DNA of 64,000 bases, from positions 1 to 64,000 of the IMG/VR virus record IMGVR_UViG_3300032132_000211. The stretch is one strand, 5' to 3'. Position 1 is the first letter of the stretch; each line of letters starts with the position of its first letter. Origin of the DNA: a virus. Both the position numbers and the translations under genes were made by a program. Shown here piece after piece: positions 10,920 to 60,154 of the stretch. The notes under the pieces were generated by a model. It made no database searches. It was not told where the DNA came from and saw only the letters and a program-made list of their open reading frames with translations.

Positions 10920-12056
10920 TTAAATCCATCCTTGTTTTATTGTGTCTACTATATATTCTCTGTCTTCCGGTGTTACCCACCAACCTACTGGTATACATAC
11001 TATCTCGTCGCCAACTATGTCTAAGTTTGGTAGGAAAGATTTAAATTCATTTACGCAGCTATATATGTCGTTGCGCTCATGTACTCTGCTTGTAGTTATA
11101 CCTTTGTCCGCGAGTGCGGCCATAAAGGACTCTCGGTTCCGTACCCGCAAGGTGTACAACCAATAGGATGACGTTGTGTCGTCAAGAACCTCTGTAGCCA
11201 AACCTTCTGGGAGATTAGCGTCATAATATTCTGCGTTCTCCAAATGTACATGTAGCAAGTTGTTAACGTGCTTTAGATTCTCTATACCTATGCAAGCGTT
11301 GATGTCATTCATATGGAACTTGAAACCGTATTCTTCTACGTCATTCTGGCACCGCATATCCTTCTGCGTCCCTTCTCTATCCATGCCGTACCATCTTAGG
11401 AGCTTAGCCCGTGTGTAAAGATCCCTGTTTGGACACACCAGCATCCCACCGTCACCGCAAGTAAGATGCTTGATAGCCTGAAAAGAGAATGTTGATAGGT
11501 TGCCCGTGAAGCCCACTGATTTGCTTTTATAAGTGCTACCAAAAGCGTGAGCGCAGTCTTCAATCACGGCTGGCTTGAATCCCCACGTATGCAACGACTT
11601 CTCCTGTATCTTTGCGAGCCGGTCCAGGTCTACGGGCGCACCTCCCCAGTGGACTACCATGATAGCCTTAGTGTCAGGCCCAATCTTTCTTTCAAGATCA
11701 CCCATATCCATGTTTAGCGTTTCTGGGTCAACATCAACCCACTTAATCTTGTATCCATTTGCTAGTATGGGTGCGTTCGTAGCAAAGCAAGTTAAAGGCG
11801 TTGCCAGCACAGTATCACCCCGCTGCATACCTTGCCATTTACCGTGGGGCTTCTTTAACAAATGTAGAGCCAAGTGCTCGGCTGAGGTGCCGGAGTTAAC
11901 CGTGACCACCTTTGGCTCGTCAAACCTGCTTCCTAACAGCTTTTCAAATTCATCTACTTTAGGACCTTGCCCTATGTATCCTGTAGACATAATCTCTGCG
12001 ATTGCTTCAACTGATGCTGGTGCGCAGAACACCTTAAATAATGGTATATCTCTCAT
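10920..12056 (-). CDS. DegT/DnrJ/EryC1-family sugar aminotransferase
   Basis: The 378-residue PLP enzyme carries GTSAEHLALHLL (cofactor phosphate binding), IEDCAHAFG with Asp167 and the PLP lysine Lys196 in SFQAIKHLTCGDGG. This family transaminates keto-sugar nucleotides to amino sugars. Context with an epimerase/dehydratase, two GNATs and several glycosyltransferases supports synthesis and transfer of a modified amino sugar. The start overlaps the end of the oxygenase gene by 4 bp. Confidence 0.88.
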   Translation of the reverse strand: MRDIPLFKVFCAPASVEAIAEIMSTGYIGQGPKVDEFEKLLGSRFDEPKVVTVNSGTSAEHLALHLLKKPHGKWQGMQRGDTVLATPLTCFATNAPILANGYKIKWVDVDPETLNMDMGDLERKIGPDTKAIMVVHWGGAPVDLDRLAKIQEKSLHTWGFKPAVIEDCAHAFGSTYKSKSVGFTGNLSTFSFQAIKHLTCGDGGMLVCPNRDLYTRAKLLRWYGMDREGTQKDMRCQNDVEEYGFKFHMNDINACIGIENLKHVNNLLHVHLENAEYYDANLPEGLATEVLDDTTSSYWLYTLRVRNRESFMAALADKGITTSRVHERNDIYSCVNEFKSFLPNLDIVGDEIVCIPVGWWVTPEDREYIVDTIKQGWI

Positions 12057-12733: not shown

Positions 12734-13551
12734 TAGTAAACTCCTTCTCCAGCTGTGGCAGCGTCTACAATTTGTCCGTTCTGGTTTTTATAGTGCAACA
12801 TATTCGATCCTTTCCCTATCTGTGCTATGAGCTTACCGTCCATTTGCGCCTGCGGCCAGACAAGCTGCATCTCCTGTGCTTTTGATTCAAACCTATTCTG
12901 TGGCGCGGGCCACTTCATATTCTTGCCCCAAGAGTTTCGTAAGCTCCAGTATGTAGAGCACAGCATATACTTGTACTCAGTGGCCTTCTTTAGCACTTTT
13001 GGTCCTGCAGCCACGACATCTGGGTTAGCGTCGTACAGGTCTATGTACTGCTGTAGCCAGTTATCTTGTTGTACCACACACGCCTCATTCATAAAGAATG
13101 TGAACTCATAATTGTGTTTTAAAAGATCGTGAGCGAGGTGGTGCCCACCCATGTCTTCTCCAACATTGCCACGACTTATAGTTACTTTATTGGTCTTGTA
13201 TGGCACCCTGAATGAGTCGATCATAGCATTTACTGTGGATACGTTAGAGCCTCTAACATCCGCCCGGTTCAAGGCACCAACATCGTATGTGTTTTGTACA
13301 AAGTATATATCAACATCGCACCCTGGAGGGTGCTCCTTGTAGCTCTGGAGGAACACGTCTAAACGTTTCGGGTAATGAGCGAACACCACCAATGCCATCC
13401 TTGGCTTTGTCTCCACCTTATCCAGATCTAGGTGGCCGTGCCAGTACAAACCATCGACGTTGCACGCCGGGCAAGTAACTACGTGCTGGGCTGGGTACTC
13501 AATAGGAGAAACCTGCTCACAGGACTTACACCTGTATTCGTAAAGCGCCAT
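12733..13551 (-). CDS. FmdB-type zinc ribbon fused to a GT-A-like domain
   Basis: 272 residues. The N-terminus MALYEYRCKSCEQ ... TCPACNVDG is a FmdB/CxxC-CxxC zinc ribbon (Cys8, Cys11, Cys27, Cys30). The rest (from about residue 50) resembles a GT-A glycosyltransferase: MALVVFAHYPKRLDVFLQSY, EFTFFMNEACVVQQDNWLQQY in the position of the acceptor/metal site, and WPQAQMDG near the end. A canonical DxD was not found, so catalytic activity is uncertain. The fusion of a small zinc ribbon to a glycosyltransferase-like domain is unusual. Confidence 0.6.
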   Translation of the reverse strand: MALYEYRCKSCEQVSPIEYPAQHVVTCPACNVDGLYWHGHLDLDKVETKPRMALVVFAHYPKRLDVFLQSYKEHPPGCDVDIYFVQNTYDVGALNRADVRGSNVSTVNAMIDSFRVPYKTNKVTISRGNVGEDMGGHHLAHDLLKHNYEFTFFMNEACVVQQDNWLQQYIDLYDANPDVVAAGPKVLKKATEYKYMLCSTYWSLRNSWGKNMKWPAPQNRFESKAQEMQLVWPQAQMDGKLIAQIGKGSNMLHYKNQNGQIVDAATAGEGVY

Positions 13552-14465
13552 TATACTAGACTCCTATAGTACTCTACAGTCTCAGCCACACCGTCTTCAA
13601 GGGAAGTCAGTTCTGGTTGTTTGCCATCGTACAGCGGAGCCAGCGTGCTAGGGTCGCCAAGAACAACTGAGTTCTCAGGTTCGCCACCGCGCATCGGCAC
13701 GTAGTTAATGCTTCCCGAACCGGCGCAGGCGATCACGATTTCAGCGATCTCCGTAACCGTAGTGTCCCGGCCAGTGCCAGCATCGAACTTAAACTGTGTG
13801 TCTTGGTCCTTTTCTGGTTGTTGAGCGTACTGCCCGTGTTCAACCGTTCCGGCCCGGACTAGTACGTCTGCGACATCCGCGACGTGGATCATGTCCATGA
13901 TCTGTGAGCCGTCACCGTAAACAGTGATTGCCTCTCCTCGCAGAGCGGGGAGTACAAAGTTCGGCATGATCTTCCTAACTGGCTTGGACTTCTGTCCAGG
14001 GCCGTAGGCGTTCAGTGCTCGGACAACTGAGATTTCAGTTCCGTGCTCTTGATTAAACATCCAGGCGAATCTCTCAGCCGTGGTTTTTGAAATTGAATAA
14101 CTGTTGTTCATCCAGTAGTTACCTACGGTGATATACACGCATTTCTTTTCGTAGTTCCTGCAAGCTTGAAATATATTCAAACTGCCAAGAATGTTCACTT
14201 CAATCGCGGGCCTGGGCTCGTTGATTGTCTCTGAAGTACCCAAGACACCAGCGCAGTGAAACACTACGTCGTGAACGGCAACTGCTTCGTTGACCGCTGT
14301 AAAGTCTCTGATATCTCCTACCCACCAATTCACCTTCTTGTGCTCTGCGAAGAAGTCGTTGCCGTTAAACCTGTCAAAGACAGTGACCTCATGCCCCTCT
14401 TTGAGAAGCTTATCCACTGTATACCCACCTATAAATCCATTACCACCTGTCACTAAAGCCTTCAT
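13551..14465 (-). CDS. NAD-dependent sugar epimerase/dehydratase
   Basis: 304 residues from ATG 14465, chosen because GAGGAG lies just before it and it overlaps the upstream stop as ATGA. The extended-SDR hallmarks are present: GGNGFIGG (residues 7-14) for NAD binding, VFHCAGVLG, and the catalytic Tyr123-x3-Lys127 in SYSISKTTAERF. NAYGPGQ and the YGDGSQIMDMIHVADVA block are typical of GalE/RmlB-type nucleotide-sugar enzymes. It likely supplies the sugar nucleotide used by the DegT enzyme or the glycosyltransferases. Confidence 0.88.
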   Translation of the reverse strand: MKALVTGGNGFIGGYTVDKLLKEGHEVTVFDRFNGNDFFAEHKKVNWWVGDIRDFTAVNEAVAVHDVVFHCAGVLGTSETINEPRPAIEVNILGSLNIFQACRNYEKKCVYITVGNYWMNNSYSISKTTAERFAWMFNQEHGTEISVVRALNAYGPGQKSKPVRKIMPNFVLPALRGEAITVYGDGSQIMDMIHVADVADVLVRAGTVEHGQYAQQPEKDQDTQFKFDAGTGRDTTVTEIAEIVIACAGSGSINYVPMRGGEPENSVVLGDPSTLAPLYDGKQPELTSLEDGVAETVEYYRSLV

Positions 14466-15247
14466 ATTACTCTCCTCACCCAATCCGGGTATTCAGTTGC
14501 GTTTTTGTGGCCCTTAGTAAACCACTTTTTGAGTTCCACATCATCAGTAACACGGTTATGTACGCCCCGTCCGCTTTCAATCTCTTCAGGACTCCAAATA
14601 TAAGCAGCTTTTCGTGCGTGCTCTTTTTTAATAGTATTCCAGTCAAGTCTGTGCAGATGCAATAGAAGTAAATTAGGGTCCGGTATGTCCGCCATTCCAC
14701 GATGATGCCCCACTTTCCAGCGTTGGAACTCACGCAGAACCAAGGGCTTGCACATTGCCTTGCTCTGCCACCATTTAGATCTTTGCTCAAGCAGTGGAGT
14801 GTTGGACCAGTCCAGAGCCGCCTCTCCTTCAGCTTGAATTATTTCAAAGCCACTAGTAGTGACTACCTTTTTCTTATTCCTATCTAAAAAATCCCGTAGG
14901 TCTTCATACTTTTCTAAGTTTGGAACCATGATCTCATCTATGTCTGCGTGTATAACCGTTTTATACTCATTCAAAAGAACGGAAGCTGCAGAGTTCATAG
15001 TGTCGATAATAGAGATATGGTCAAACGCATAACCTCCCTTTACGGTTCCTGAGTAACCCGCTTGGCCGAAGTCAATCGTGCGTACATTTATACTATCCGG
15101 TACGTGTGCCTCTACACAACCATCTGTGCTGCCGTTGTCGTAAATATAAATGTCCTCGTCGTCTATGTTCTTTCTGTAGTAATCCATGAACGTTGGCAAC
15201 ATTATGTTCTCGTCTTTTAGTATAGTTACTAAGGCCGTTTTACCCAT
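14462..15247 (-). CDS. Glycosyltransferase (GT2/GT92-like)
   Basis: 261 residues beginning ALVTILKDENIMLPTFMDYY, with IYIYDNGSTDG (nucleotide binding) and the metal-binding HADIDEIM (Asp102, Asp104). LHLHRLDW towards the C-terminus is typical of the Glyco_tranf_2_4/GT92 group that adds galactose or related sugars. It overlaps both neighbouring genes in the ATGA/TAATG style of the operon. Confidence 0.85.
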   Translation of the reverse strand: MGKTALVTILKDENIMLPTFMDYYRKNIDDEDIYIYDNGSTDGCVEAHVPDSINVRTIDFGQAGYSGTVKGGYAFDHISIIDTMNSAASVLLNEYKTVIHADIDEIMVPNLEKYEDLRDFLDRNKKKVVTTSGFEIIQAEGEAALDWSNTPLLEQRSKWWQSKAMCKPLVLREFQRWKVGHHRGMADIPDPNLLLLHLHRLDWNTIKKEHARKAAYIWSPEEIESGRGVHNRVTDDVELKKWFTKGHKNATEYPDWVRRVI

Positions 15248-37228: not shown

Positions 37229-37237
37229 ATTATACCA
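37229..37237 (-). promoter_or_regulatory. Extended -10 (TGGTATAAT), leaderless start at 37222
   Basis: On the - strand TGG-TATAAT, TATAAT 37234 to 37229; 6 nt to ATG 37222. It overlaps the 3' end of the glycosyltransferase gene, giving the tail-completion genes a separate start of transcription. No clear -35. Confidence 0.55.
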
Positions 37238-39635
37238 CACTCCCAGGATTTCCTACCTTCACATGCGCTGCAGCCAGTGGCTGCAGCTTGGTGTAGATCT
37301 CCCTTACGGAGTTCAACATGTCGGCATCTGCGTGCATACCATCGGTACACTTAATGATCTCGAAAGCCTCGGTGATCTTCATCAGACTCAGCTCTCTCCA
37401 GGCAGCAATGAGATCCGGGTTGACGCTCACCGCTGTACGGAGAAGCTCCTCTGCCCTAGGCAGGTTCCCGTAGTTGCGATAATGCAAAGCAAGCTCGAAC
37501 ATAGCCTTGGAATTGTCTGGGTTGTCTACAAGCTCTAGTTCCAGCAACTCTGCGTAGACAGCTAACTTCTTATGAATCTTCTCATCAGGCTCCAAGAACC
37601 CCGTGTTAACAGACTTGATGTTGTAATCCTCTGAGTGAATTTTAGGGTAGGGGAGGAGTGCCTTGTCCAATGTCTCATGTACCCTACCACTGTAGAAGTA
37701 CTTAGGAGAGTTCTTGAAAATCCTAGGCTGGAAGGTTGTTACCCTGTGGCCTGTCTTCTGTACGTTCTCTAGACGCCAAACAGCAACCTCTGGACCTTTT
37801 GGAAGCATGGCTATAATCTTATGTAGCCCACCTTCTTCCAGCCGCTCATCGGGGTCGATGTGCATACAATACTTGGAGGTAGACAGCTCGATACATCTGT
37901 TTCGTACAGCGGAGAAGTTCTTGTTTAGATCCATCTTCGTGTAAGGAACACCTACCATATCTAGGTTCTTCATAGTGTTGTCTGTTGACCCGGTGTCGAT
38001 AAGAATGAACTCATCCACAATGGCGAAGTACTGCATCAGCATCAGGCCAATATTCATTTCTTCATTGAGCATCATTGTGTTAACAGATAGTGTCCAAGGT
38101 TTCGGGGCCATCATTGTCAGGCCAGACTCGTTAGTGAGGTGGTCGTATCCGTTGTCTCCTACTAGAGACTGCTTAATAGAGTCTGGGGTGGTGTCGATCT
38201 TTTCGTACCACTCCTTCTTTTCTTTGGTTCTCTCGAAATCAATATACCCGTAATGGTCTACCGACAAGTTACAAGGCATGCTACAGCTCATTGGAATACT
38301 GATTGGGATTCCGCCTGTGTGAAGACCTGGATCGTCAACAGACATCTTTGGACGTAATTTAGGTTTAAACACGTTCTTCCACATACGCCGCATGAACATC
38401 GTGCCCCAGTTGCCGTCAGTTCTGGCAAGCTCCTTGGAGCGCCAGAAGTTGTTGAAGTACATTTCGTAGCACAGAATGTTTGGGTCCAACGGATGCATCA
38501 GCGTCTGGACACGTTCTGCTTTAGCGCCCTCCGAGAAACACTCATCATGGTCCATCATAATGCACCAATCGAAGTCTGCGTCGTAAGCTGCTTGTAAGAG
38601 GTTCAGCCGATCCCTGGTTTCGCTAAAGCCAGCTGACTTTTTAACTGGAATGAACTGCCGTAGCTTATCACCGAACATTTCCTTAGCGATTTCGTAAGTC
38701 AGCAGTTTTGACCTGTCAGATAGAATTATAACACCATCAACCAGCGGCAAGTTCCTAGCTGCACAGTCACGGAATAATTGCAATTGTTCCTCGTCGTCAA
38801 TTTTAACGCGCTGTGTTAAAAGCAATGTCTTCGTATCTTTTTCAATATACTTATTAACGTAAGTAGCCCAGTTAGCTACCCCGCGAGACAGTTCGGGGAA
38901 AAGCTTGTCAAGAGTTTTGTGGCCCTTGTGGTAGATAAAGCACGTAGGCGAGATTACTGACGCGAAGCCAGCCTCTGTAGCCCTGTGGACAAAGTCGTTA
39001 TCACAGAAACCACCTGGGGAGAATCTCTCGTCAATTCCGCCTATCTTTTCATAGACAGCACGGGTCATCATCAAGCAAAAGCCGCTCAGGAAGCCTACCA
39101 TAGAGTAGTCTACATTCCAAACACTGCCGTCGTTTTGTTGTCCCTTCTCTGCTTGCAATCTACGAGTTTCTCTATCCAGATCGGCTATTACTTTAGGAAT
39201 GTCTTTGATCGTAGCCTCCTGCAAGCTTTGGTGAGACTGCATTCCAGCTGCGTTATTAGACAGCGGGCCTACGAGACCTACGTTGTCGTGATGGAAGTTA
39301 GGAGTCGTAATGCCCCTTAGCATACGCTCCAGCCAGTTTTCACAAACTACCGTATCGTCATTGAGCCACACAATGTACTTGCCTGTTGATGCTGCCATGC
39401 CCTGATTTGTTGCTGTACAAAAGCCTTTGTTGTCCTCGTTGGTGATGACCTTTAAGTTCTTTACAGTCTTGTTTTCTGCAAGGTATTCTAGGAATTTTGG
39501 AGTGTTGTCTGTTGAGCCGTTGTCTACTACGATTAATTCTAGGTCGTCTAAGTTTGAACAACTTACTATTGATTCTGTACACTCAATTAGATCTTGAACA
39601 TTATCCACCGTTGGAATTATTACACTAAATTTCAT
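37230..39635 (-). CDS. Multi-domain glycosyltransferase with TPR end
   Basis: 801 residues with three GT-A-like regions. Residues about 1-260: GT2 with FSVIIPTVDN, LIVVDNGSTDN, YIVWLNDDTV and RFSPGGFCDNDF. Residues about 300-500: a second region with DWCIMMDHDECF (DxD-like). Residues about 515-690: TLSVNTMMLNEEMN, FILIDTGSTDNT, YCMHIDPDERL. The last ~100 residues are TPR-like (AMFELALHYRNYGNLPRAEELL). Large multi-domain glycosyltransferases occur in phages with glycosylated surfaces. It sits in the structural module and is expressed late, so virion proteins are plausible acceptors (inference). Confidence 0.8.
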   Translation of the reverse strand: MKFSVIIPTVDNVQDLIECTESIVSCSNLDDLELIVVDNGSTDNTPKFLEYLAENKTVKNLKVITNEDNKGFCTATNQGMAASTGKYIVWLNDDTVVCENWLERMLRGITTPNFHHDNVGLVGPLSNNAAGMQSHQSLQEATIKDIPKVIADLDRETRRLQAEKGQQNDGSVWNVDYSMVGFLSGFCLMMTRAVYEKIGGIDERFSPGGFCDNDFVHRATEAGFASVISPTCFIYHKGHKTLDKLFPELSRGVANWATYVNKYIEKDTKTLLLTQRVKIDDEEQLQLFRDCAARNLPLVDGVIILSDRSKLLTYEIAKEMFGDKLRQFIPVKKSAGFSETRDRLNLLQAAYDADFDWCIMMDHDECFSEGAKAERVQTLMHPLDPNILCYEMYFNNFWRSKELARTDGNWGTMFMRRMWKNVFKPKLRPKMSVDDPGLHTGGIPISIPMSCSMPCNLSVDHYGYIDFERTKEKKEWYEKIDTTPDSIKQSLVGDNGYDHLTNESGLTMMAPKPWTLSVNTMMLNEEMNIGLMLMQYFAIVDEFILIDTGSTDNTMKNLDMVGVPYTKMDLNKNFSAVRNRCIELSTSKYCMHIDPDERLEEGGLHKIIAMLPKGPEVAVWRLENVQKTGHRVTTFQPRIFKNSPKYFYSGRVHETLDKALLPYPKIHSEDYNIKSVNTGFLEPDEKIHKKLAVYAELLELELVDNPDNSKAMFELALHYRNYGNLPRAEELLRTAVSVNPDLIAAWRELSLMKITEAFEIIKCTDGMHADADMLNSVREIYTKLQPLAAAHVKVGNPGSVV

Positions 39636-50666: not shown

Positions 50667-52160
50667 TTACACCAGAGCAACGTTCACAACTGCCGAAGCA
50701 ACCGTGTTCGTGGCCGAAGGAACGAGCATGGACTTGAAGTCCAAACGCTGCAAGGCAACGAGGACCTGTTGGTCTGTCTCAATTCTTTCTTTACTCTTCA
50801 GCGTAATCGCACGGCTATCACCGAAGCGGAACTGATCCCGTCTGACGAGCATGACTTCTGTCTGAGTGCCGGTGCCTGAATTCAGGCCCTCTGCATCCAG
50901 ATCTTCTGGTACATGTTCGCTGACGATAATAGGAATTCCGTCAAGTGCGCCAAGCTGACCAGCATGAATCGTAGCACGAGGGCCAAACGTGTCAACGGTC
51001 GTGACTTCTGTGAAGCCAAGAAGGTTGTTATACGCGTTAATGCCGACGAGCCAGAAAAGCTGACCAATGTCTACGCCATATTTACCCAAGTCGGTACGTG
51101 CAGCACGAACTTCCGCGAGGGAGAGCGCGCCAGCAGCATTCGAGGTCGTACCGGCGAGCTGGATGGCCCGACGATATCCGTCGTATGCAATTTTATGACT
51201 GGTGGTGAGGGTAGCACCATCAATATTCGTAAGACCGGAAGTTCGTTCGTCACCATTAATAACGGTGTTCTCCTGGGCGTTAGCCAAGGCTAGAACGATC
51301 TTCTCGCGAACATAAGGAAGAGTAGCGATGACCGAGTCTTCCGTCATTTCGGTAGAAACGACAACTCGTACGCCGACCTTCGAGGTCGCGAATGCCCGGT
51401 TGATAGTTCCCGGCGTCGATGCAGTTACACGGTTACCGGCCGTGAGGTCAGCATCGTCCGTGGTGTTCTCAGGAACGCTGTACGCCGTGGCGTCAGCTCC
51501 TTCGACAGGGAACTTGTACGGATCAGTAGGCATGTTGAATCGAGAATGCTGGTTTGCAACCCGGAGGTTGAGACGAACGTCCTCGAACAAGCTAGAACTG
51601 AAATTCGTAGGAATCCACTCGGCACCAGTGGCGCTTCCGCCAGTTTCCATTGCCTTGAACAGCGCAGGATGGTTTGTACGAGCATAATCCATAATACCTT
51701 CGCACTGGCGAAGATCACGTCCACCCATAAGGGTTTGCGCGAGATATAGTTCGTCGTTACCGCGTTGAATTTCTTCGAGTTCCGAACCGGCCTGAGCCTT
51801 ATTAGAAATTAAAGCCTTAAGTTGAACAGGGGAGTAGGAAGCTACGTTAGTATCCTCAGACACCTCAAATTCAGCTTTGCGATCTGAACGCTGATTGAGA
51901 ACGCTATTGAGCGACTTTTGCAGGCCGGTAATATCGGCTTGCACACGGTCAATCTTTTCGCGATCATCAGAGCGTCGTCCATCGTCGGAGGCTTTTTGGT
52001 CTGCTGTTGCAACCATCTCGCGAAGGTCGCTAACGGCCTTCATGAGAGTGTCTACATCACCAGTAGAATCTGTGGGTTTATCACTTTCTCCAAGCTTATC
52101 AGGATCGAGTACGATCGTCTGATCTGCTTCTTCTGTGACATCCTTTTTTTCTTCTGACAT
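50667..52160 (-). CDS. Major capsid protein (HK97 fold)
   Basis: 497 residues. N-terminal ~115 residues are charged coiled coil, the delta (scaffold) domain that the prohead protease removes. The mature part has ATGAEWIPTNFSSSLFEDVR, in parts GAEWIPTNFSSSLF, SVIATLPYVREKIVLALANAQE (VREKIVLALANAQE), LFWLVGINAYNNLL and PIIVSEHVPEDL, all typical of HK97-like capsid proteins. Preceded by GGAGG, an upstream promoter and a hairpin leader, followed by an intrinsic terminator: a self-contained high-expression unit. Confidence 0.92.
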   Translation of the reverse strand: MSEEKKDVTEEADQTIVLDPDKLGESDKPTDSTGDVDTLMKAVSDLREMVATADQKASDDGRRSDDREKIDRVQADITGLQKSLNSVLNQRSDRKAEFEVSEDTNVASYSPVQLKALISNKAQAGSELEEIQRGNDELYLAQTLMGGRDLRQCEGIMDYARTNHPALFKAMETGGSATGAEWIPTNFSSSLFEDVRLNLRVANQHSRFNMPTDPYKFPVEGADATAYSVPENTTDDADLTAGNRVTASTPGTINRAFATSKVGVRVVVSTEMTEDSVIATLPYVREKIVLALANAQENTVINGDERTSGLTNIDGATLTTSHKIAYDGYRRAIQLAGTTSNAAGALSLAEVRAARTDLGKYGVDIGQLFWLVGINAYNNLLGFTEVTTVDTFGPRATIHAGQLGALDGIPIIVSEHVPEDLDAEGLNSGTGTQTEVMLVRRDQFRFGDSRAITLKSKERIETDQQVLVALQRLDFKSMLVPSATNTVASAVVNVALV

Positions 52161-53124: not shown

Positions 53125-54135
53125 TTAAATAACGATTTTCGCGACTTTGGTTGCAAGGCCAGCAACGTCGGACTTTACGTGTTCGACGAGCTTATCGCGT
53201 TCATCTGTTATCTTTTTTAATTTTGCATCCGTGAGGAGCTTAGTTGTCGTCATGCTTTCTTCTAGCACTTCTGCCAACTCAGCCTTCTCTTGTAGCTGCG
53301 TGTAGTCTTCCGCCCACGTCTCATCTTGTTTCACAAAGCAGTCCAAACAAAGAACAAGTTCCTTGCCGGTAGGCTCGATGGCCCAAGACAGGCCCTGGAC
53401 ATCAGTCTCGTCACAAACAGAACAGTCGCCTTCCGTAAAGCTAAACGTCTGAATGATCGGCTGATTAATTACCGCAACGTCGTCAACCTCTTCCGCTTCC
53501 ACCACTTTAGTCTCGACCTCTGGGTTGATTGCGTCTTCATCCGAGCCAACGAGCTGTTTGTAGGACACTAGATCCCCACCAGTCTCGGGCTGGAACATGA
53601 TCGACTTCCAAGAACCATCCATCGTCGTAAACGTGGAGTCAGCGTTCATAGGAATCGTAACAATTGACACTTCCAGTAGTTCCATGTCTTTAATAACCGT
53701 AACATCAGTCTCTGGGTCATAGTCGCTCTTTACGGGCCGGAATCCGATGCTGAAGGAGCGTACTAGACCTTGATCCACTAACTTCCAGACCTTGTCGGCT
53801 TCTGCGAAATCGCTAGCGACTTCAGCTTCAACGAACAGTCCATCGTCACTGATTTTAAAGTCTGTAATAGTTCCAACAGGTACTGCCCAGTCATGATTGT
53901 AGAACATGACAGGGTTTTCCATATACTTGTCGATTGAACTCTTAAATGCGTCAGGCAGGACCAGATCCTTGCCTCGATCAATCGTTGCCGTGTTGGCAAA
54001 GCCTTTGATCTTTCTACTACGGCTACCACTTGCCGACTTGGTGTCTAGGCTGTTTGTGGCTTCTGTTTGGATTGCGTCAAATGTAAAGCTTTTTACTCGA
54101 CCTTCAACGACTTCTTCAGGTTGTGAATTCTTCAT
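53125..54135 (-). CDS. HK97-type prohead protease, long form
   Basis: 336 residues. Residues about 40-180 match the U35 prohead protease: IKGFANTATIDRGKDLVLPDAF, given as FANTATIDRGKDLVLP, the His of MFYNHDWAVPVGTI (His81) and the Ser of VRSFSIGFRPV (Ser127/129). A C-terminal extension of ~150 residues has two CxxC pairs (CSVCDET, LCLDCF) and a helical end (KITDERDKLVEHVKSD), so it may act as scaffold or bind zinc. It cleaves the capsid delta domain in maturation. Confidence 0.88.
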   Translation of the reverse strand: MKNSQPEEVVEGRVKSFTFDAIQTEATNSLDTKSASGSRSRKIKGFANTATIDRGKDLVLPDAFKSSIDKYMENPVMFYNHDWAVPVGTITDFKISDDGLFVEAEVASDFAEADKVWKLVDQGLVRSFSIGFRPVKSDYDPETDVTVIKDMELLEVSIVTIPMNADSTFTTMDGSWKSIMFQPETGGDLVSYKQLVGSDEDAINPEVETKVVEAEEVDDVAVINQPIIQTFSFTEGDCSVCDETDVQGLSWAIEPTGKELVLCLDCFVKQDETWAEDYTQLQEKAELAEVLEESMTTTKLLTDAKLKKITDERDKLVEHVKSDVAGLATKVAKIVI

Positions 54136-54198: not shown

Positions 54199-55644
54199 CT
54201 ATTCTGGCTTATCTTCTTCTTCGGGCTCTTCTGTGTCTTCTGGAGCGTTATCAACAGGGACAGGTGCCTCTGGTAGCTCTTCTCCTGTATGCTCCGATAA
54301 CGCTGGTGTACCTGAGTAACTGGCAAATCGTGGTGATGGTATATCGCCCCAATCTAGTATGGCTTCGTCTGGATATAGGTGGCCTAAAACCTTGTTTATG
54401 GGCCAGCCGACGCGCTCTACTAAGGTAGCAGCCGTCTCAGCTCTGACCTTCTTCATATCATCCGTCTCTCTAAGAGCCGGGATATTCGTGATATCAGGAA
54501 CAATTTCAAAATGCTGTGAGAACTCTTTCGTAAGGCTAGAGTTCAGCTTTGTTAGGATTCTGTTGGCTAGCGGTTGGATAGTACGCGACCAGAAATCAAT
54601 GTGCTGTTCTCGGACACCAGCACTGCGTCCTGAGCTGCTTTCCGCATTAAAGATGCCTACGATTGACGGCGGAACCTTGAGAATACTAAGGATTTCCTCT
54701 CTGCTATGCTTTCGCAGATTAAGGAAATCTAAATCTTTGGGATTGGGAGTTGTTTGTTGCCAATTCATTCCTCCAGACAAAATAATAATCTTACCGACCT
54801 TACTTGTGCCCTCATAACTCTGTTTCAGTTCTCTTTTTGCTCTACGATACTCTTCTTCGTTAAGGCCGTCCTCAACGGTGATAACGCCAGAAGGCCATGT
54901 CGCGTTGCTAAAGTACGATGCGTTCCAATTAAGAGCTTCCCAATCTAAGTCCATTGTCTGCCTGATCGCTGCAATTGGGGCTAACCCATAGTGGGACTCA
55001 CCTCGGGGATCAGGCATTTTTATATGGATCACCTCGTCAGGACTAAATGAGATTTTAATTTGGTTGACAGTGTACACATAGCCCTTGACAAACTTCGTAG
55101 GATGGGGCAGAACTTGCATGTTTTTTGGATTTAGTACATACAGCTCATGTGGTCGGCCTCTTGAGTCTAGTGCGGCTTTTTCAATATATGCGTTCCCCGT
55201 GAGAAGGAGGTGCATAGCCACTGTCTCCTTAAATTCTACTGCGCTCATCCAAGGATTTGGATTATTAAGAAGAGGGGACAGCCCAACGCCATCTCCCTTC
55301 ACAGCCTCGTTTGGCTGGCCTTTTCTGCGCTTATCAATTACCCTGAAATTAACTTGGCTTAATGCTCCAGCAATCGTGCTTACTCCAATGTAGAGCCAGA
55401 CGGATCTTGCATACTTATTCAGTAATGTAGAGTAGCCTTCGTCGCCCTGCATCCCTAGATCGCCAAATCCAGAGCCAGAACCAAAATAGTTGTTGGTGTA
55501 TACGTTTGAATCTTGGTGCGCTGCTCTAGCTGCCCCTGAATCCTTCGTGTCGATCTGGCCGTGCTGTTGCTCCAGCATTTCGATACGGGAATCTCTACGG
55601 GAACTAGGCAAAATTGCGCTAAGTGTATCTCTAATTAAGCCCAT
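54199..55644 (-). CDS. Portal protein (HK97 family)
   Basis: 481 residues, with ARSVWLYIGVSTIAGALSQVNF (RSVWLYIGVSTIAGAL), LLNNPNPWMSAVEFKE, HLLLTGNAYIEKA, EVIHIKMPDPRG and LRKHSREEILSILKVPPSIVG, the hallmark blocks of HK97-like portals. The C-terminus is acidic and Pro/Glu-rich. It forms the dodecameric DNA entry ring and docks the terminase. The ATG lies 5 nt after an extended -10 and has no RBS, so a leaderless mRNA is predicted. Confidence 0.92.
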   Translation of the reverse strand: MGLIRDTLSAILPSSRRDSRIEMLEQQHGQIDTKDSGAARAAHQDSNVYTNNYFGSGSGFGDLGMQGDEGYSTLLNKYARSVWLYIGVSTIAGALSQVNFRVIDKRRKGQPNEAVKGDGVGLSPLLNNPNPWMSAVEFKETVAMHLLLTGNAYIEKAALDSRGRPHELYVLNPKNMQVLPHPTKFVKGYVYTVNQIKISFSPDEVIHIKMPDPRGESHYGLAPIAAIRQTMDLDWEALNWNASYFSNATWPSGVITVEDGLNEEEYRRAKRELKQSYEGTSKVGKIIILSGGMNWQQTTPNPKDLDFLNLRKHSREEILSILKVPPSIVGIFNAESSSGRSAGVREQHIDFWSRTIQPLANRILTKLNSSLTKEFSQHFEIVPDITNIPALRETDDMKKVRAETAATLVERVGWPINKVLGHLYPDEAILDWGDIPSPRFASYSGTPALSEHTGEELPEAPVPVDNAPEDTEEPEEEDKPE

Positions 55645-55695: not shown

Positions 55696-56454
55696 TTATA
55701 CAACAAATATACGCTTAGATACGTACGATATGCTGTCTATGGCCGCTCGTCTGGCAAACCAGAGGGCCATCATAGTATCATCGTGCCTGCCAATTGGATA
55801 AGAAGTCAATTCATTGATTAAAATGCCGCACAGATCCCTCTCATCCTCACCCATCATGGGAATAGTCCAGTTGTGCTTCTCAAACTCTACTGCCATTCGT
55901 GGGAGGCCGTTCTCAAGATCGTTCTTATTGACGGCGTTGGTTGTGAAAGACTTTACCGGCAGATCGGTCTTTCTTTTTAGTTCTTGGACAATGGCCTCCT
56001 GATATGCGTTGTTTTCAACCATAATTAAATTCGGGTCGAAATAATCAGCCCACAGCTCGATCTTCCTGATTTGTTCACTGAATGTCAGGCCCCGGTCTCG
56101 AAACATTCCGACTAAAGTCTTACGCCTCGTAGTTTTGTCACAAACTATAATTGAAATACAAAAGAAGTCACCTTGACTCTTCTTAGTAGCAATTGCGAGG
56201 TCAACTCCCATGAAACATTTATATGATTCTGGAAAAGTCCCTCTGAATGTGTTTTCTTGGCCTGGGAAGTATAGCTCCGCTTCTGAGTCAATACATTCTT
56301 CTACGTGTTCCGGCCTGAATAGAATGTCGTCCGTTGCCAAGGGCTGCTGACGCCAGCCACGAGCAAACTCTCGCTTCCCTACTTCCTCTTCTTTGTTTTT
56401 AAGTACCTTTGCGTTCCACTTCTCCCACAAAGGAACCTGCGCTGTAAGTTTCAT
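55696..56454 (-). CDS. Terminase large subunit, nuclease domain (separate ORF)
   Basis: 252 residues. Contains the RNase H-like nuclease motifs of TerL: MGVDLAIATKKSQGDFF (first Asp), IMVENNAYQEAIVQEL and HDDTMMALWFARR (last Asp pair), preceded by GKREFARGWRQQPL, the usual linker after the ATPase. It begins in an ATGA overlap with the ATPase fragment. A full-length TerL would need both; here the nuclease is a separate polypeptide. AAGGA lies before the ATG. No slippery heptamer fits the overlap, so re-initiation is likelier than frameshift. Confidence 0.82.
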   Translation of the reverse strand: MKLTAQVPLWEKWNAKVLKNKEEEVGKREFARGWRQQPLATDDILFRPEHVEECIDSEAELYFPGQENTFRGTFPESYKCFMGVDLAIATKKSQGDFFCISIIVCDKTTRRKTLVGMFRDRGLTFSEQIRKIELWADYFDPNLIMVENNAYQEAIVQELKRKTDLPVKSFTTNAVNKNDLENGLPRMAVEFEKHNWTIPMMGEDERDLCGILINELTSYPIGRHDDTMMALWFARRAAIDSISYVSKRIFVV

Positions 56455-57233
56455 ATTAAAATTTCCTTTAACTCGTGCCCGAAGTATTCCTTGTACTCTT
56501 CTACGTGCTGATCTGGAATGATTACGTCGCAGTCCAATCCAGAGAAGTCGTCAGCCACCTTCTGAATCAACACACCGTATTGATTGAGCATGATGGGGTC
56601 TGAGGTAACAAATCCAAGAAGGTCGTCTTCGTGCCAACGAGTACAAATTGCTATCACCTGGCGTTTATTTTCATTGCCTTCTACGTTTGGCTCCACACGA
56701 GACAGCCAGACCTGTGCGTAAGTTGCTAGATGCTGCTCTCGTGTTGATGGCTGCGATACCGCAGTTCTCTGGTCGAAGATATCGTCAACAAGCAGTATGT
56801 CTGCTCGTCCACCAATCGCTGAGGACATAATACCTTTAGCATCGACGCTTGCGTCTTTTGCGATTGTCTTACGTTCAACGAACAGCTTATGTTTGCTCCA
56901 TTCCTCCTTGTTTCCTGGAATAATGCCGGGGAACAAGGTTTTGAAGTCTTCGTCTGTTTCTATATAAGCCTTAATAGCAGAGAGCCGCTCTTTGGCAGCA
57001 TCGTCTGATAGGCATACTAGTTTAATTCTTAATGTAGGATCATTCCCTAGTAGAAATAGTGGCAGTGCGACTGCCGTGATCTGAGTGTTATGTGACACCA
57101 CGCCGTTAGTAACGTGGTTGTTAGTACCTTCGACTTCTAGGCCGATGGTTTGCTGGACGCCTACGTCTTCTACTGAAGCAACCTCGTCCCAGCCTTCATT
57201 CTCGTTATCTATTGCTAATTTAAGATTTGGCAT
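56451..57233 (-). CDS. Terminase ATPase C-part with C-terminal split intein half
   Basis: 260 residues. The first 49 residues are the C-terminal half of a split intein: block F WDEVASVEDVGVQQTIGLEV, given as VEDVGVQQTIGLEV, and block G NGVVSHN, followed by +1 Thr50. The extein then reads TQITAVALPLFLLGN ... Walker B ADILLVDDIFDQ, and the coupling motif AICTRWHEDDLLGF. After splicing the junction would recreate APMSSGK-TQIT, the Walker A lysine-threonine pair. The start is ATG 57233, overlapping the endonuclease gene by 14 bp. Confidence 0.88.
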   Translation of the reverse strand: MPNLKLAIDNENEGWDEVASVEDVGVQQTIGLEVEGTNNHVTNGVVSHNTQITAVALPLFLLGNDPTLRIKLVCLSDDAAKERLSAIKAYIETDEDFKTLFPGIIPGNKEEWSKHKLFVERKTIAKDASVDAKGIMSSAIGGRADILLVDDIFDQRTAVSQPSTREQHLATYAQVWLSRVEPNVEGNENKRQVIAICTRWHEDDLLGFVTSDPIMLNQYGVLIQKVADDFSGLDCDVIIPDQHVEEYKEYFGHELKEILI

Positions 57234-57558
57234 GTGGTTTAATCCTTGTAGCTGATACAGCTCTACCTTTGTATTTATACCTGTAGGCTTCTATTTTCTT
57301 ATCGGCTTCCGCTGACTGTTGTTCAGGGGTTTGCCAGGAGCAGTTGTGGACTGAATAGTTGCCCAAGTCCATTCGCCTGCCCAATGTAGTTCCAAATGGC
57401 CTTTCACCCATTTGCTTTAAAAATTTGTTGTAGTCTTTCCATGAAGGGTCGTACGTAACGCCTCTGCCGCCGTAATAAGCAAAATATATGTGCTCTGTGT
57501 TATCGCAGCGGTCTTTCATATAGAGCCAAGACTGATATGTTCCGTTAGGGTCTTTCAT
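57220..57558 (-). CDS. Free-standing homing-endonuclease-like gene in the split
   Basis: 112 residues carrying the block YGGRGVTYDPSWKDYNKFL, then GERPFGTTLGRRMDLGNYSVHNCSWQT, given as GERPFGTTLGRRMDLGNY and VHNCSWQTPEQQ. This G-x-TL-x-R-x-D-x-G-x-Y-x-x-x-NC-x-W pattern marks a family of small phage endonuclease-like (HNH or related) proteins that are often free-standing homing genes. Here Asp/Asn positions deviate slightly (RRMD for RIDN). It lies between the two intein halves and overlaps the start of the C-terminal half, so it was probably the agent that fractured the gene. Confidence 0.72.
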   Translation of the reverse strand: MKDPNGTYQSWLYMKDRCDNTEHIYFAYYGGRGVTYDPSWKDYNKFLKQMGERPFGTTLGRRMDLGNYSVHNCSWQTPEQQSAEADKKIEAYRYKYKGRAVSATRIKPHAKS

Positions 57559-57628
57559 CTAGTAACCAAAGTAGCAGTGCTACAAATTCCCCCAAAATTA
57601 TAAAGTCGTGTTCCATTTTGTGTTCTAT

Positions 57629-57662
57629 AACCCAGGGAAGCTGGTTAAAGCCTCCCTGGGTT
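57629..57662. terminator. 10-bp inverted repeat, possible terminator or mRNA stabiliser
   Basis: AACCCAGGGA and TCCCTGGGTT form a perfect 10-bp stem with a 14-nt loop. In the - direction no U run follows; in the + direction GTTACTTTT follows. It lies ~70 bp before the endonuclease start. Confidence 0.5.
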
Positions 57663-57754
57663 GTTACTTTTAGTCTCTTGATATCATCATCGACCGGCCT
57701 GGCTCCCTCTTCCCCTTCTTTTCAGTCGAAGCTTTGGGTGCGAAGCACTGGATC

Positions 57755-57876
57755 TTTTTTTCTTCATCTTCTTTTTACTCTTCTTTTATTTCTCTTCTCT
57801 TCTCTTTATTTCTTATTATTTCTTCTTCTCTTCTTTCTTCTTCTTTTGTTTTTTCTTCTGTTGTTTCTTTATAAAG
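57755..57876. repeat. ~120-bp pyrimidine-rich tract
   Basis: The + strand is almost entirely T and C with occasional A (TTCTTCTCTTCTTTCTTC-like), so the - strand transcript would be rich in GAAGAAG. Its reading on either strand gives only low-complexity peptides. It may be an imperfect triplex-prone sequence or a relic of an eroded gene. Confidence 0.75.
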
Positions 57877-57988
57877 GGTCGCCACTCAGTTACCTATATG
57901 TCGTTGAAAACATTCGGGAATGCTGACGTTGCCCCGGTCGGTAGGATTCTGGTCCTACCCCATGGCCCATGTACTTGAGGATCTCCAT

Positions 57989-59140
57989 TTATACGATTCC
58001 CAGAATCCTCGTAAATTCGGGTATTTGTTCATCTTTAAGTACAACAGCAATAACGCGCTTTATTTCAGGGTCCCAGGTTACTCCACTCACATTATCAGGC
58101 TCTTCAGCATCATTGCCTACTATACCTGCCTGTGCGTGAGGTTGTCGCTGCTTTTGTTGTGTGAGTAGTTCTTCGTCTAGAAGTATTAAATTCTCCACTG
58201 AACTCTCCCCACATGTATATTGTAGCAAACGCTGTATGCCGTTTGCAAGGCTTTTCGAGTCCGTTGCCATATAAATTATCTTCTGCTCCTTGTCCCATAC
58301 GCCAAGACAGTCGAAATAGCCTTTTAAGAAGAACTTCACTACCTTTTTACTATGTAAACTGATTTGATTTATGATGTCTTGTTCACACAGGTCGTAGGTC
58401 CCGATAGCCCGTGTGTAGTAGTCAGACTTGTAATCCTTGTTCTTACTGAACTTGTAAGGGTCGAATTCCACATCGCGTTCCTTACTAAAATCAGAGTAAA
58501 AGCCGATAGCACCGTCCTTGGCTCCGTAGTAGTCAGTGTTCTTAGCCAGTATACATCCAATCATGTACGCGTCTGTAGTCGTGTACATGTCTAGGACGTG
58601 TTCCTTCTCCCATTTTATAAGTGTCTTTACTTTATCCTTCTTAGGACGCAGATCCTGCGCCTCTATCCAGCCCGAGTCTGTCAAGAACGGGTGATCTTCG
58701 CTGACGGTAATTCTCCTTCCACTTTTAAATGTGACTTCAATGCACTTCTTCTCAAAGCTCTCCTTCTTGCTAACTGGCTTCCATACTGGCTTCCTGTTCT
58801 CTTCATCATAGCTGAGAACCCTGTCACCAGGCTCGATTGACTCAGCTTCTACATAACCGGCCTGTGTTAATACGGGTGTATCTGGGGCCATGCATTTACC
58901 CGATGACATTGGGGCCAGGATAAGGCAATTCAAATTGTTAGCTTTACAAAAGGATATGTGTCGTATCCAAGTCTTTTGTAGCTCGGCTAGTTCAATCTTA
59001 GCGCCGGAGCTTTCGTCCTTGACTACATATTCACAGAACGCCATGAAGTCTTCTCTGGCATTCTGCCTCTTCTTCTCCTCTAGGAGACCTTCTCGTTCTT
59101 TAAGTAGAGCTTCTTGTTGCTTCAGTATTGATGCGTCCAT
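57989..59140 (-). CDS. Terminase N-terminal part with N-terminal split intein half
   Basis: 383 residues. Residues 1-82 are the TerL start, ending ILAPMSSGK, i.e. Walker A cut after the Lys. Cys83 begins the intein: CMAPDTPVLTQAGYVEAES (block A), then block B RITVSEDHPFLTDSGW. From about residue 190 there is a DOD/LAGLIDADG-like endonuclease region (AYMIGCILAKNTDYYG and FFLKGYFDCLGVW). In active enzymes both blocks carry an acidic catalytic residue in a D-G pair; here they read KNTD and CLG, so the domain is probably inactive. The ORF stops after ILGIV with no C-terminal intein motifs; these are on 56451-57233. Confidence 0.88.
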   Translation of the reverse strand: MDASILKQQEALLKEREGLLEEKKRQNAREDFMAFCEYVVKDESSGAKIELAELQKTWIRHISFCKANNLNCLILAPMSSGKCMAPDTPVLTQAGYVEAESIEPGDRVLSYDEENRKPVWKPVSKKESFEKKCIEVTFKSGRRITVSEDHPFLTDSGWIEAQDLRPKKDKVKTLIKWEKEHVLDMYTTTDAYMIGCILAKNTDYYGAKDGAIGFYSDFSKERDVEFDPYKFSKNKDYKSDYYTRAIGTYDLCEQDIINQISLHSKKVVKFFLKGYFDCLGVWDKEQKIIYMATDSKSLANGIQRLLQYTCGESSVENLILLDEELLTQQKQRQPHAQAGIVGNDAEEPDNVSGVTWDPEIKRVIAVVLKDEQIPEFTRILGIV

Positions 59141-59685
59141 TATAAGTCAACCTTCTCCTTTTTATCCATCGCCTCAAACTCAGCATCCAAGGCATCAAGT
59201 TTGGCTTTGTTTTCATCTAGCTTATCTTTGATCTCTTTAGGATTGTCAATCTTGACTTCGTGCTCATGCTTAACAACCTTGTCTGGTTCACCCATAAGCG
59301 ACCTTACTAGGTCTACTGCATTCGCCATAGAAGAAGAAAGCTCTTTGATCGTAGCCTTCTCAATCTTATCAGAGTCAACAATTGCCGCCGATGCCATGCT
59401 TATGAATGCTACCATGTTGATAATGGTTTCTTTTTTCTTAATATTATAATATGCTTCTAATTCTTGATCGTCATCAAAGTAAGTTTTTAATTCACCTTTA
59501 CGATACTGTGAATACATATCCCAAGAAAGCTTTGCCAAGTCGGGTCCCGCCGCTAGCATTATTTCAGATGTTTTGCTGTTGGCCTCCTTAACCTTCTTCT
59601 CAAGATCCTTCACAGCCACCACGGAGTCGGCTTCTTTATCCGCCTCTAGCTCCTTCTCGTCAAACTTTACAATTTTCTTTGTCAT
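59140..59685 (-). CDS. Putative terminase small subunit
   Basis: 181 residues, largely helical, ending in an acidic coiled-coil (DKLDENKAKLDALDAEFEAM). It is coupled to the terminase large subunit by a TAATG overlap, the usual place for TerS, which recognises the packaging site. No clear helix-turn-helix was recognised, so the assignment depends on position and general composition. Confidence 0.5.
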   Translation of the reverse strand: MTKKIVKFDEKELEADKEADSVVAVKDLEKKVKEANSKTSEIMLAAGPDLAKLSWDMYSQYRKGELKTYFDDDQELEAYYNIKKKETIINMVAFISMASAAIVDSDKIEKATIKELSSSMANAVDLVRSLMGEPDKVVKHEHEVKIDNPKEIKDKLDENKAKLDALDAEFEAMDKKEKVDL

Positions 59686-59696
59686 AAGTATCTCAA

Positions 59697-59924
59697 CTAG
59701 TTAAAATTTTTGTCTCGGCTAGAAACGTGTTGTAGGATTAACGCAGCTAACCTCTCTAGATCTACGTCGCCTAATATGAACACGCTCTTGTTAACCCCTG
59801 ACTTAGAATCTACAAACAGGAAGAGTCCTTCTATATCACCTTGCAAGGATAGCTCTTCTACTGTGTCGCTGAATCGGTCCAACACCTCATCATGCGTGTC
59901 AGCCTCCAGATCTACAACTTTCAC
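59697..59924 (-). CDS. Unknown small acidic protein
   Basis: 75 residues from GTG 59924, overlapping the upstream stop (GTGA). VKVVDLEADTHDEVLD-like start and two helices (FSDTVEELSLQGD, DLERLAALILQHV). No family recognised; co-transcribed with the terminase genes. Confidence 0.5.
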   Translation of the reverse strand: MKVVDLEADTHDEVLDRFSDTVEELSLQGDIEGLFLFVDSKSGVNKSVFILGDVDLERLAALILQHVSSRDKNFN

Positions 59925-60154
59925 TTCTTTGCCCGATCCCTATACTTCTTGTGGTGCTGCTTCACCTTTTCAGGGTGCTCAGTTTTCCAATTCTTATGGT
60001 AGTCCGGGTGCTCGGCCTTCCATTTACGATAATAATTGCCTTTACACGTTTTGCAAGGATAAACGATCTTGTTTGTCGTTTTCCTGGTATAGAATTGATC
60101 TTCGGGCTGGTCCGTTCCACATTTTTTACAATGATATGTTAATTTGTCCGTCAT
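59921..60154 (-). CDS. Small zinc-binding basic protein, first gene of late operon
   Basis: 77 residues: YHCKKCGTDQPEDQFY and YPCKTCKGNYYRKW give a C-x2-C / C-x2-C zinc ribbon, followed by basic repeats (KAEHPDYHKNWKTEHPEKV). Similar zinc-ribbon modules precede HNH or endonuclease VII domains in phages, but no nuclease domain follows here. AAGGAGAAAAG is upstream. It may bind DNA or RNA; function unknown. Confidence 0.6.
   Translation of the reverse strand: MTDKLTYHCKKCGTDQPEDQFYTRKTTNKIVYPCKTCKGNYYRKWKAEHPDYHKNWKTEHPEKVKQHHKKYRDRAKK

What the first reader, a model, noticed from the sequence alone, without database searches (positions are those of the whole stretch)
55696..59140. Fractured terminase gene: split intein in the Walker A motif with endonuclease gene between the halves
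Seen: the N-terminal ORF ends its extein at APMSSGK and continues with intein blocks A and B; the C-terminal ORF begins with intein blocks F and G (ending NGVVSHN) and continues TQITAVALPLF. Joining them restores GKT of the Walker A motif. Between them lie a free-standing endonuclease-like gene and 430 bp of non-coding DNA. Known: such 'fractured genes' with split inteins and an endonuclease gene have been described from environmental phage-type sequences (Dassa et al. 2009). Inference: packaging depends on trans-splicing, which adds a step at which late assembly could be controlled.
Basis: partly seen in the sequence, partly recalled or inferred. Interest (0 to 1): 0.9.

Follow-up and report, generated by a model that had tools for sequence, protein, structure and literature searches.

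The report
Fractured phage packaging-motor gene with split intein
In this uncultured phage the gene for the DNA-packaging motor is broken inside a self-splicing protein insert (intein), so the motor's ATP-binding site should exist only after two separately made proteins are stitched together; such broken genes are known, but this one still carries the dead remains of two selfish DNA-cutting genes.

Summary
On the minus strand, ORF-N (57989-59140) is an 82-aa TerL N-extein ending ...APMSSGK plus a 301-aa IntN. ORF-C (56451-57233) is a 49-aa IntC plus a C-extein starting TQITAV. Joining them restores Walker A where intein-free relatives are continuous: 93 TerL loci align across the junction, 73 with no gap beside it.

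Three corrections. (1) The RNase H nuclease domain is a third, separate gene (55696-56454), so the predicted trans-spliced product is a ~293-aa ATPase, not ~540 aa. (2) IntN keeps a LAGLIDADG endonuclease domain that has lost both catalytic acids (conserved in 12/12 relatives). (3) The gene between the halves is HNH-family and has lost its conserved D/E and final N (conserved in 10/10). No RNA intron was detected.

Relatives show other states of the same site: empty, full LAGLIDADG intein, mini-intein. Best reading: an HNH-bearing segment broke a LAGLIDADG intein; both nucleases decayed while exteins and core splicing residues stayed, so the ATPase should depend on trans-splicing. Splicing is untested, and control of packaging by it has no evidence. 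New variant of a known kind.

The parts
57989..59140 (-). ORF-N, 383 aa: TerL N-extein + IntN
   Evidence: TIGR01445 and PT-HINT hits; GGAGAAGG ribosome-binding site upstream
58895..59140 (-). TerL N-extein, 82 aa, ends APMSSGK (first half of Walker A)
   Evidence: aligns to L001 and L002 immediately before their Walker A T/S
57992..58894 (-). IntN, 301 aa: Cys1, Hint blocks A and B, decayed LAGLIDADG domain
58535..58567 (-). LAGLIDADG motif 1, IGCILAKN in place of (A/G)DG
   Evidence: acid kept in 12/12 aligned inteins, lost here
58298..58333 (-). LAGLIDADG motif 2, FFLKGYFDCLGV in place of ..DG
   Evidence: acid kept in 12/12 aligned inteins, lost here
57559..57988 (.). Non-coding stretch with purine tracts (minus strand) and a 14-bp-stem hairpin at 57629-57662
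   Evidence: no Rfam match
57220..57558 (-). HNH-family ORF, 112 aa, conserved D/E and final N of the motif lost
   Evidence: PHROG 8790 E 1.4e-27; alignment of ten relatives
57243..57247 (-). AAGGA, likely ribosome-binding site of ORF-C, inside the HNH ORF
   Evidence: sequence
56451..57233 (-). ORF-C, 260 aa: IntC + TerL C-extein (ATPase)
   Evidence: Intein_splicing match and terminase PHROG 38 E 2.2e-26
57087..57233 (-). IntC, 49 aa, blocks F and G, ends NGVVSHN
56454..57086 (-). TerL C-extein, 211 aa, +1 Thr, Walker B LLVDD, motif TRWHEDD
55696..56454 (-). Separate TerL nuclease (RNase H-type) gene, 252 aa
   Evidence: Terminase_6C E 0.00067 (just below cut-off) and PHROG 38; 47% identical to L050
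59140..59685 (-). Candidate small terminase gene (by position only)
   Evidence: overlaps the start of ORF-N; no convincing family hit

Best explanation
The gene for the large terminase subunit of this tailed phage is fractured. A class 1 intein sits between K and T of the Walker A motif (GK|T). It is encoded in two pieces, IntN (301 aa) on ORF-N and IntC (49 aa) on ORF-C. The two proteins should associate and trans-splice (Cys1, penultimate His, terminal Asn, +1 Thr), ligating 82 + 211 residues into a ~293-aa ATPase that works with a separately encoded RNase H-type nuclease. Origin (inferred): a LAGLIDADG intein homed into TerL; its endonuclease lost function; an HNH-bearing segment (~755 bp) inserted between the LAGLIDADG domain and block F and brought the ribosome-binding site that now starts ORF-C; that HNH gene has since decayed too. 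The order of the two losses is not known. The result is a non-mobile split intein, hard to lose because it sits in an essential motif. Shown by sequence: anatomy, junction, core splicing residues, loss of nuclease residues, separate nuclease gene. Inferred: splicing, insertion history, essentiality.
For: Intein HMMs built without the window hit only these two ORFs; TIGR01445 and PT-HINT hits. Extein boundaries coincide with intein-free L001 and L002, and 93 TerL loci span the junction. The same site carries continuous inteins in 13 other distinct contigs: L056 and L250 with LAGLIDADG (~406 aa), L217 mini (~134 aa). The C-end of the L056 intein is 41% identical over all 49 IntC residues, so no large part of the intein seems missing at the break. 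Both LAGLIDADG acids are kept in 12/12 relatives and lost here. HNH D/E and N are kept in 10/10 and lost here. TerL motifs and nuclease acids are retained. No Rfam intron. Window and L050 group 100/100 and both have a separate nuclease gene. L050 has an ORF with a weak phrog_8790 hit (E 0.004) between its ATPase and nuclease genes. A split intein with an HNH gene between its halves is described for PolB of phage MIJ3 (PMC6892783).
Against: No activity data. Block F has lost Asp (G) and His (N), though Mxe GyrA, an active intein (own knowledge), aligns here without them, and the Asp is also absent in L056 and L217. Only one contig shows the break; L050 ends inside the ATPase gene, so misassembly or a defective genome cannot be excluded by a second copy. 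The AlphaFold model of ORF-N is poor (mean pLDDT 52) and adds nothing firm. The HNH ORF is still open over 112 codons, so its decay may be recent or it may have another role.
Confidence: 0.77

Rival explanations
1. Dead intein and defective terminase: the break inactivated TerL, and the contig is a defective or satellite genome, or uses another terminase.
For: Both nucleases lack catalytic residues; block F residues are lost; single contig.
Against: All extein ORFs are open with ATPase and nuclease motifs intact; Cys1, block B His, His-Asn and +1 Thr are kept. No PF03354 match in the record and no other TerL among the large ORFs scanned, but PF03354 is only one terminase family and not every ORF was scanned.
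Confidence: 0.1
2. An RNA intron (group I or II) carrying the HNH ORF interrupts a continuous intein gene; RNA splicing removes 57234-57991 and the intein then splices in cis.
For: HNH genes often sit in phage introns; the gap is about intron-sized; the intein parts look contiguous across it.
Against: No Rfam match at the gathering score, nor at E up to 5 in the 2-kb region. ORF-C has its own ATG and AAGGA site, and the HNH ORF overlaps its start.
Confidence: 0.05
3. Assembly artefact: the HNH segment was joined into a continuous intein gene by misassembly of related phages.
For: One metagenomic contig only; no second copy of the junction was found.
Against: G+C and GC3 of all segments are alike (0.41-0.46 and 0.45-0.49); the HNH ORF and the ORF-C start overlap smoothly; such gene arrangements are known from isolates.
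Confidence: 0.05

Closest known systems
Fractured genes with split inteins (Dassa et al. 2009, NAR 37:2560; paper not held, content from memory)
   Same: Phage-type gene broken at an intein into two ORFs, with a free-standing endonuclease gene between the intein halves
   Different: Here the endonuclease is HNH-family and looks dead; the new family of the 2009 paper is, from memory, the EDxHD/Vsr-like one. IntN here keeps a decayed LAGLIDADG domain.
DNA polymerase B of Pseudomonas phage MIJ3 (PMC6892783)
   Different: Other host gene; its intein resembles a mini-intein, and no LAGLIDADG remnant is mentioned in the passages read
AceL-TerL and GOS-TerL split inteins (PMC11766414)
   Same: Naturally split inteins in phage-type large terminases
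   Different: IntN of 25-37 aa there against 301 aa here; break at a different place in the intein
Continuous TerL Walker A inteins (L056, L250, L217 here; Caulobacter phage phiCbK annotated as intein-containing)
   Same: For L056, L250 and L217 the same insertion site; Cys1, His-Asn end, +1 Thr
   Different: One uninterrupted ORF; LAGLIDADG acids kept (L056, L250) or the domain absent (L217)
TerL with separate ATPase and nuclease genes (Arthrobacter phage Kitkat; L002)
   Same: ATPase and nuclease domains encoded by separate genes
   Different: No intein; ATPase gene continuous

Membership tests
Split intein / fractured gene | Host protein broken into two ORFs, one ending in IntN, the other beginning with IntC | tested here: met
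Split intein / fractured gene | Joined exteins match intein-free homologues across the junction | tested here: met
   93 loci span the junction, 73 without a gap beside it
Split intein / fractured gene | Free-standing endonuclease-family gene between the halves | tested here: met
   HNH-family ORF 57220-57558; residues suggest it is inactive
Split intein / fractured gene | Trans-splicing activity | not testable with these tools
   needs co-expression
Class 1 intein | Cys1, block B His, penultimate His, terminal Asn, +1 Cys/Ser/Thr | tested here: met
   C83 of ORF-N, SEDH, VVSHN, T
Class 1 intein | Block F Asp and His | tested here: not met
   G and N here; the solved Mxe GyrA intein also aligns without them
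Active LAGLIDADG homing endonuclease | Catalytic acid in both motifs | tested here: not met
   AKN and CLG against DG in 12/12 relatives
Active HNH endonuclease (PHROG 8790/3377 type) | Conserved D/E before R and final N of the motif | tested here: not met
   G and E against 10/10 relatives
EDxHD (Vsr-like) homing endonuclease | EDxHD-family gene between the halves | tested here: not met
   only HNH and restriction-endonuclease PHROGs (and one of unknown function) hit; no dedicated EDxHD model was run; the 2009 paper was not readable
Large terminase (TerL) | Walker A and B, TRWHEDD motif, RNase H acidic residues | tested here: met
   spread over three ORFs
Large terminase (TerL) | ATPase and nuclease on one polypeptide | tested here: not met
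   separate nuclease gene, shared with L050
AceL-TerL type atypical split intein | Very short IntN (25-37 aa) | tested here: not met
   IntN 301 aa, IntC 49 aa
Group I or II intron | Recognisable intron RNA | tested here: not met
   no Rfam match at gathering or at E up to 5

The most novel reading that the evidence does not exclude
A packaging motor assembled from three separately translated polypeptides in which the ATP-binding P-loop exists only after protein trans-splicing, with the dead LAGLIDADG domain of IntN retained because it helps the halves associate or gates splicing, so that packaging starts only when splicing has occurred.
Probability: 0.12. Interest if true: 0.8.

Novelty: new variant of a known kind. 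Interest (0 to 1): 0.52.

Why it matters
How naturally split inteins arise is mostly inferred from end products. Here one TerL insertion site shows an empty state, a full LAGLIDADG intein, a mini-intein and a fractured intein that still carries the remains of its own endonuclease and of a second, inserted one. That makes one route testable: a second homing gene breaks a first homing element, both decay, the split stays. It also offers a naturally split intein with an unusually large IntN for biochemistry, and an essential viral motor whose ATPase site should depend on trans-splicing.

Tried and rejected
RNA intron in the 755-bp gap: no Rfam match. Programmed frameshift joining ATPase and nuclease: rejected because the nuclease ORF has its own ribosome-binding site and L050 and L002 keep the two genes apart. 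Search for other copies of the broken arrangement: ORF-N as a single query found none; profiles A7, A12 and A13 found only continuous inteins or empty sites; a portal profile found only the known sister among close relatives; genome contigs gave none. These scans rely on short peptide patterns, and records very near the window may be left out, so absence is weak evidence. AlphaFold of ORF-N: too poor to use, so no fold search was run. PF03354 in the own record: none.

Full report
The window is part of an IMG/VR virus record of 67,998 bp. The packaging and head genes run on the minus strand: candidate small terminase 59140-59685 (by position only), ORF-N 57989-59140, HNH-family ORF 57220-57558, ORF-C 56451-57233, nuclease 55696-56454, portal 54199-55644 (Phage_portal, E 6e-68), prohead protease 53125-54135 (Peptidase_S78) and capsid 50667-52160.

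Observation. ORF-N begins with 82 residues of TerL ending LILAPMSSGK and continues with an intein N-part: Cys1, block B ITVSEDHPFLT, TIGR01445 at 5.8e-11, PT-HINT at 1.7e-8. ORF-C begins with 49 residues of an intein C-part ending NGVVSHN, then TQITAVALPLF. Intein HMMs built from other inteins in the fetched loci, without the window, hit only ORF-N and only ORF-C among all window ORFs (E 2.8e-17 and 7e-10). In the intein-free TerLs L001 and L002, the two exteins align to adjoining residues at the Walker A lysine and the following T/S. Joined in a script to show the empty site, the exteins align across the junction with 93 TerL loci, 73 of them with no gap within four columns. The break is therefore at GK|T.

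Third piece. The RNase H nuclease domain is not part of ORF-C. It is a separate ORF with a 4-bp ATGA overlap and its own AAAGGA site. The closest sister, L050 (nuclease 47%, portal 49% identical), also ends its ATPase gene with a similar tail and starts the nuclease separately; window and L050 group with 100/100 support. The separation thus most likely predates their divergence, and the predicted spliced product is ~293 aa, not ~540. Separate ATPase and nuclease genes also occur in L002 and Arthrobacter phage Kitkat, so this part is not new.

Dead endonuclease 1. IntN is 301 aa because it contains a LAGLIDADG domain (LAGLIDADG_3 at 270-307). Aligned with 12 full-length inteins from fetched loci, the acid of both motifs (DG in 12/12) is replaced: GCILAKN and FDCLG.

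Dead endonuclease 2. The ORF between the halves belongs to PHROG 8790/3377 and is up to 51% identical to phage HNH proteins. In ten aligned relatives the acid before Arg (D/E) and the final Asn are invariant; here they are Gly and Glu. It has no clear ribosome-binding site, while the one for ORF-C (AAGGA) lies inside it. In L050 a different, opposite-strand ORF with a weak match to the same PHROG (E 0.004) sits between the ATPase and nuclease genes, which hints at repeated insertion of such genes into this locus.

Other states of the site. In about 230 loci with a TerL match (a few contigs counted twice), 13 distinct contigs carry a continuous intein at the Walker A site and the window alone is split (the sample was drawn by similarity and is not random). 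L056 and L250 are full LAGLIDADG inteins of ~406 aa, L217 is a mini-intein of ~134 aa, and L001, L002 and L244 are empty. L251, whose TerL sits next to L217 on very short branches, is empty at this site but carries an intein at Walker B. Inteins are therefore gained or lost here. The window IntC aligns with L056 from its first residues, so the break falls just before block F with no large part of the intein evidently missing.

Mechanism. Shown: anatomy, junction, core splicing residues, loss of nuclease residues, intact TerL motifs. Inferred: the two proteins trans-splice by the class 1 route. Block F Asp and His are missing, but the Mxe GyrA intein, the best match to ORF-C among solved structures (weak, E 0.042), also with +1 Thr, aligns without them and is active (own knowledge). 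Inferred: the HNH segment broke a LAGLIDADG intein and supplied the new start signals of ORF-C. Control of packaging by splicing remains a guess.

Compared with what is known. Split inteins around a free-standing endonuclease gene were described as fractured genes (Dassa et al. 2009; text not held) and, with an HNH gene, in PolB of phage MIJ3 (PMC6892783). The split TerL inteins AceL-TerL and GOS-TerL are known but have tiny IntN (PMC11766414). Terminases are described as a common intein target (PMC8228797). What I did not find described is a split intein that still carries a decayed LAGLIDADG domain together with a decayed HNH gene; literature access was limited, so this is a modest claim.

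Noticed in passing
L049 (Vibrio phage 1.238.A) 3065-6793: TerL of this isolated phage has a continuous LAGLIDADG-type intein near Walker A and, at the RNase H DD site, what looks like a second, fractured intein: the ORF ends in an IntN, an HNH-like frame follows, and a separate ORF annotated hedgehog/hint holds the IntC.
   Followed up: partly
L014 6404-7078; L216 7906-8553: HNH-like ORFs lie out of frame inside continuous TerL inteins, a possible step towards fracture.
   Followed up: no
L050 83-979, minus strand: ORF with a weak match to the same PHROG as the window HNH gene, between the separate TerL ATPase and nuclease genes of the sister phage.
   Followed up: partly
L056 2334-5486; L250 2434-5598; L064 898-4272: TerL genes with two inteins each: Walker A plus Walker B in L056 and L250; Walker B plus a later site in L064.
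   Followed up: partly
window 57629-57662 and 57702-57847: A 14-bp-stem hairpin and long purine tracts (minus strand) in the non-coding stretch between IntN and the HNH ORF; role unknown.
   Followed up: no
window 59921-60154: 77-aa ORF related to endonuclease VII-like PHROGs just upstream of the terminase genes, possibly another homing-gene remnant.
   Followed up: no
window 10920-12056, 13551-14483, 37230-39635: DegT/DnrJ aminotransferase, NAD-dependent epimerase and glycosyltransferase genes in the phage.
   Followed up: no
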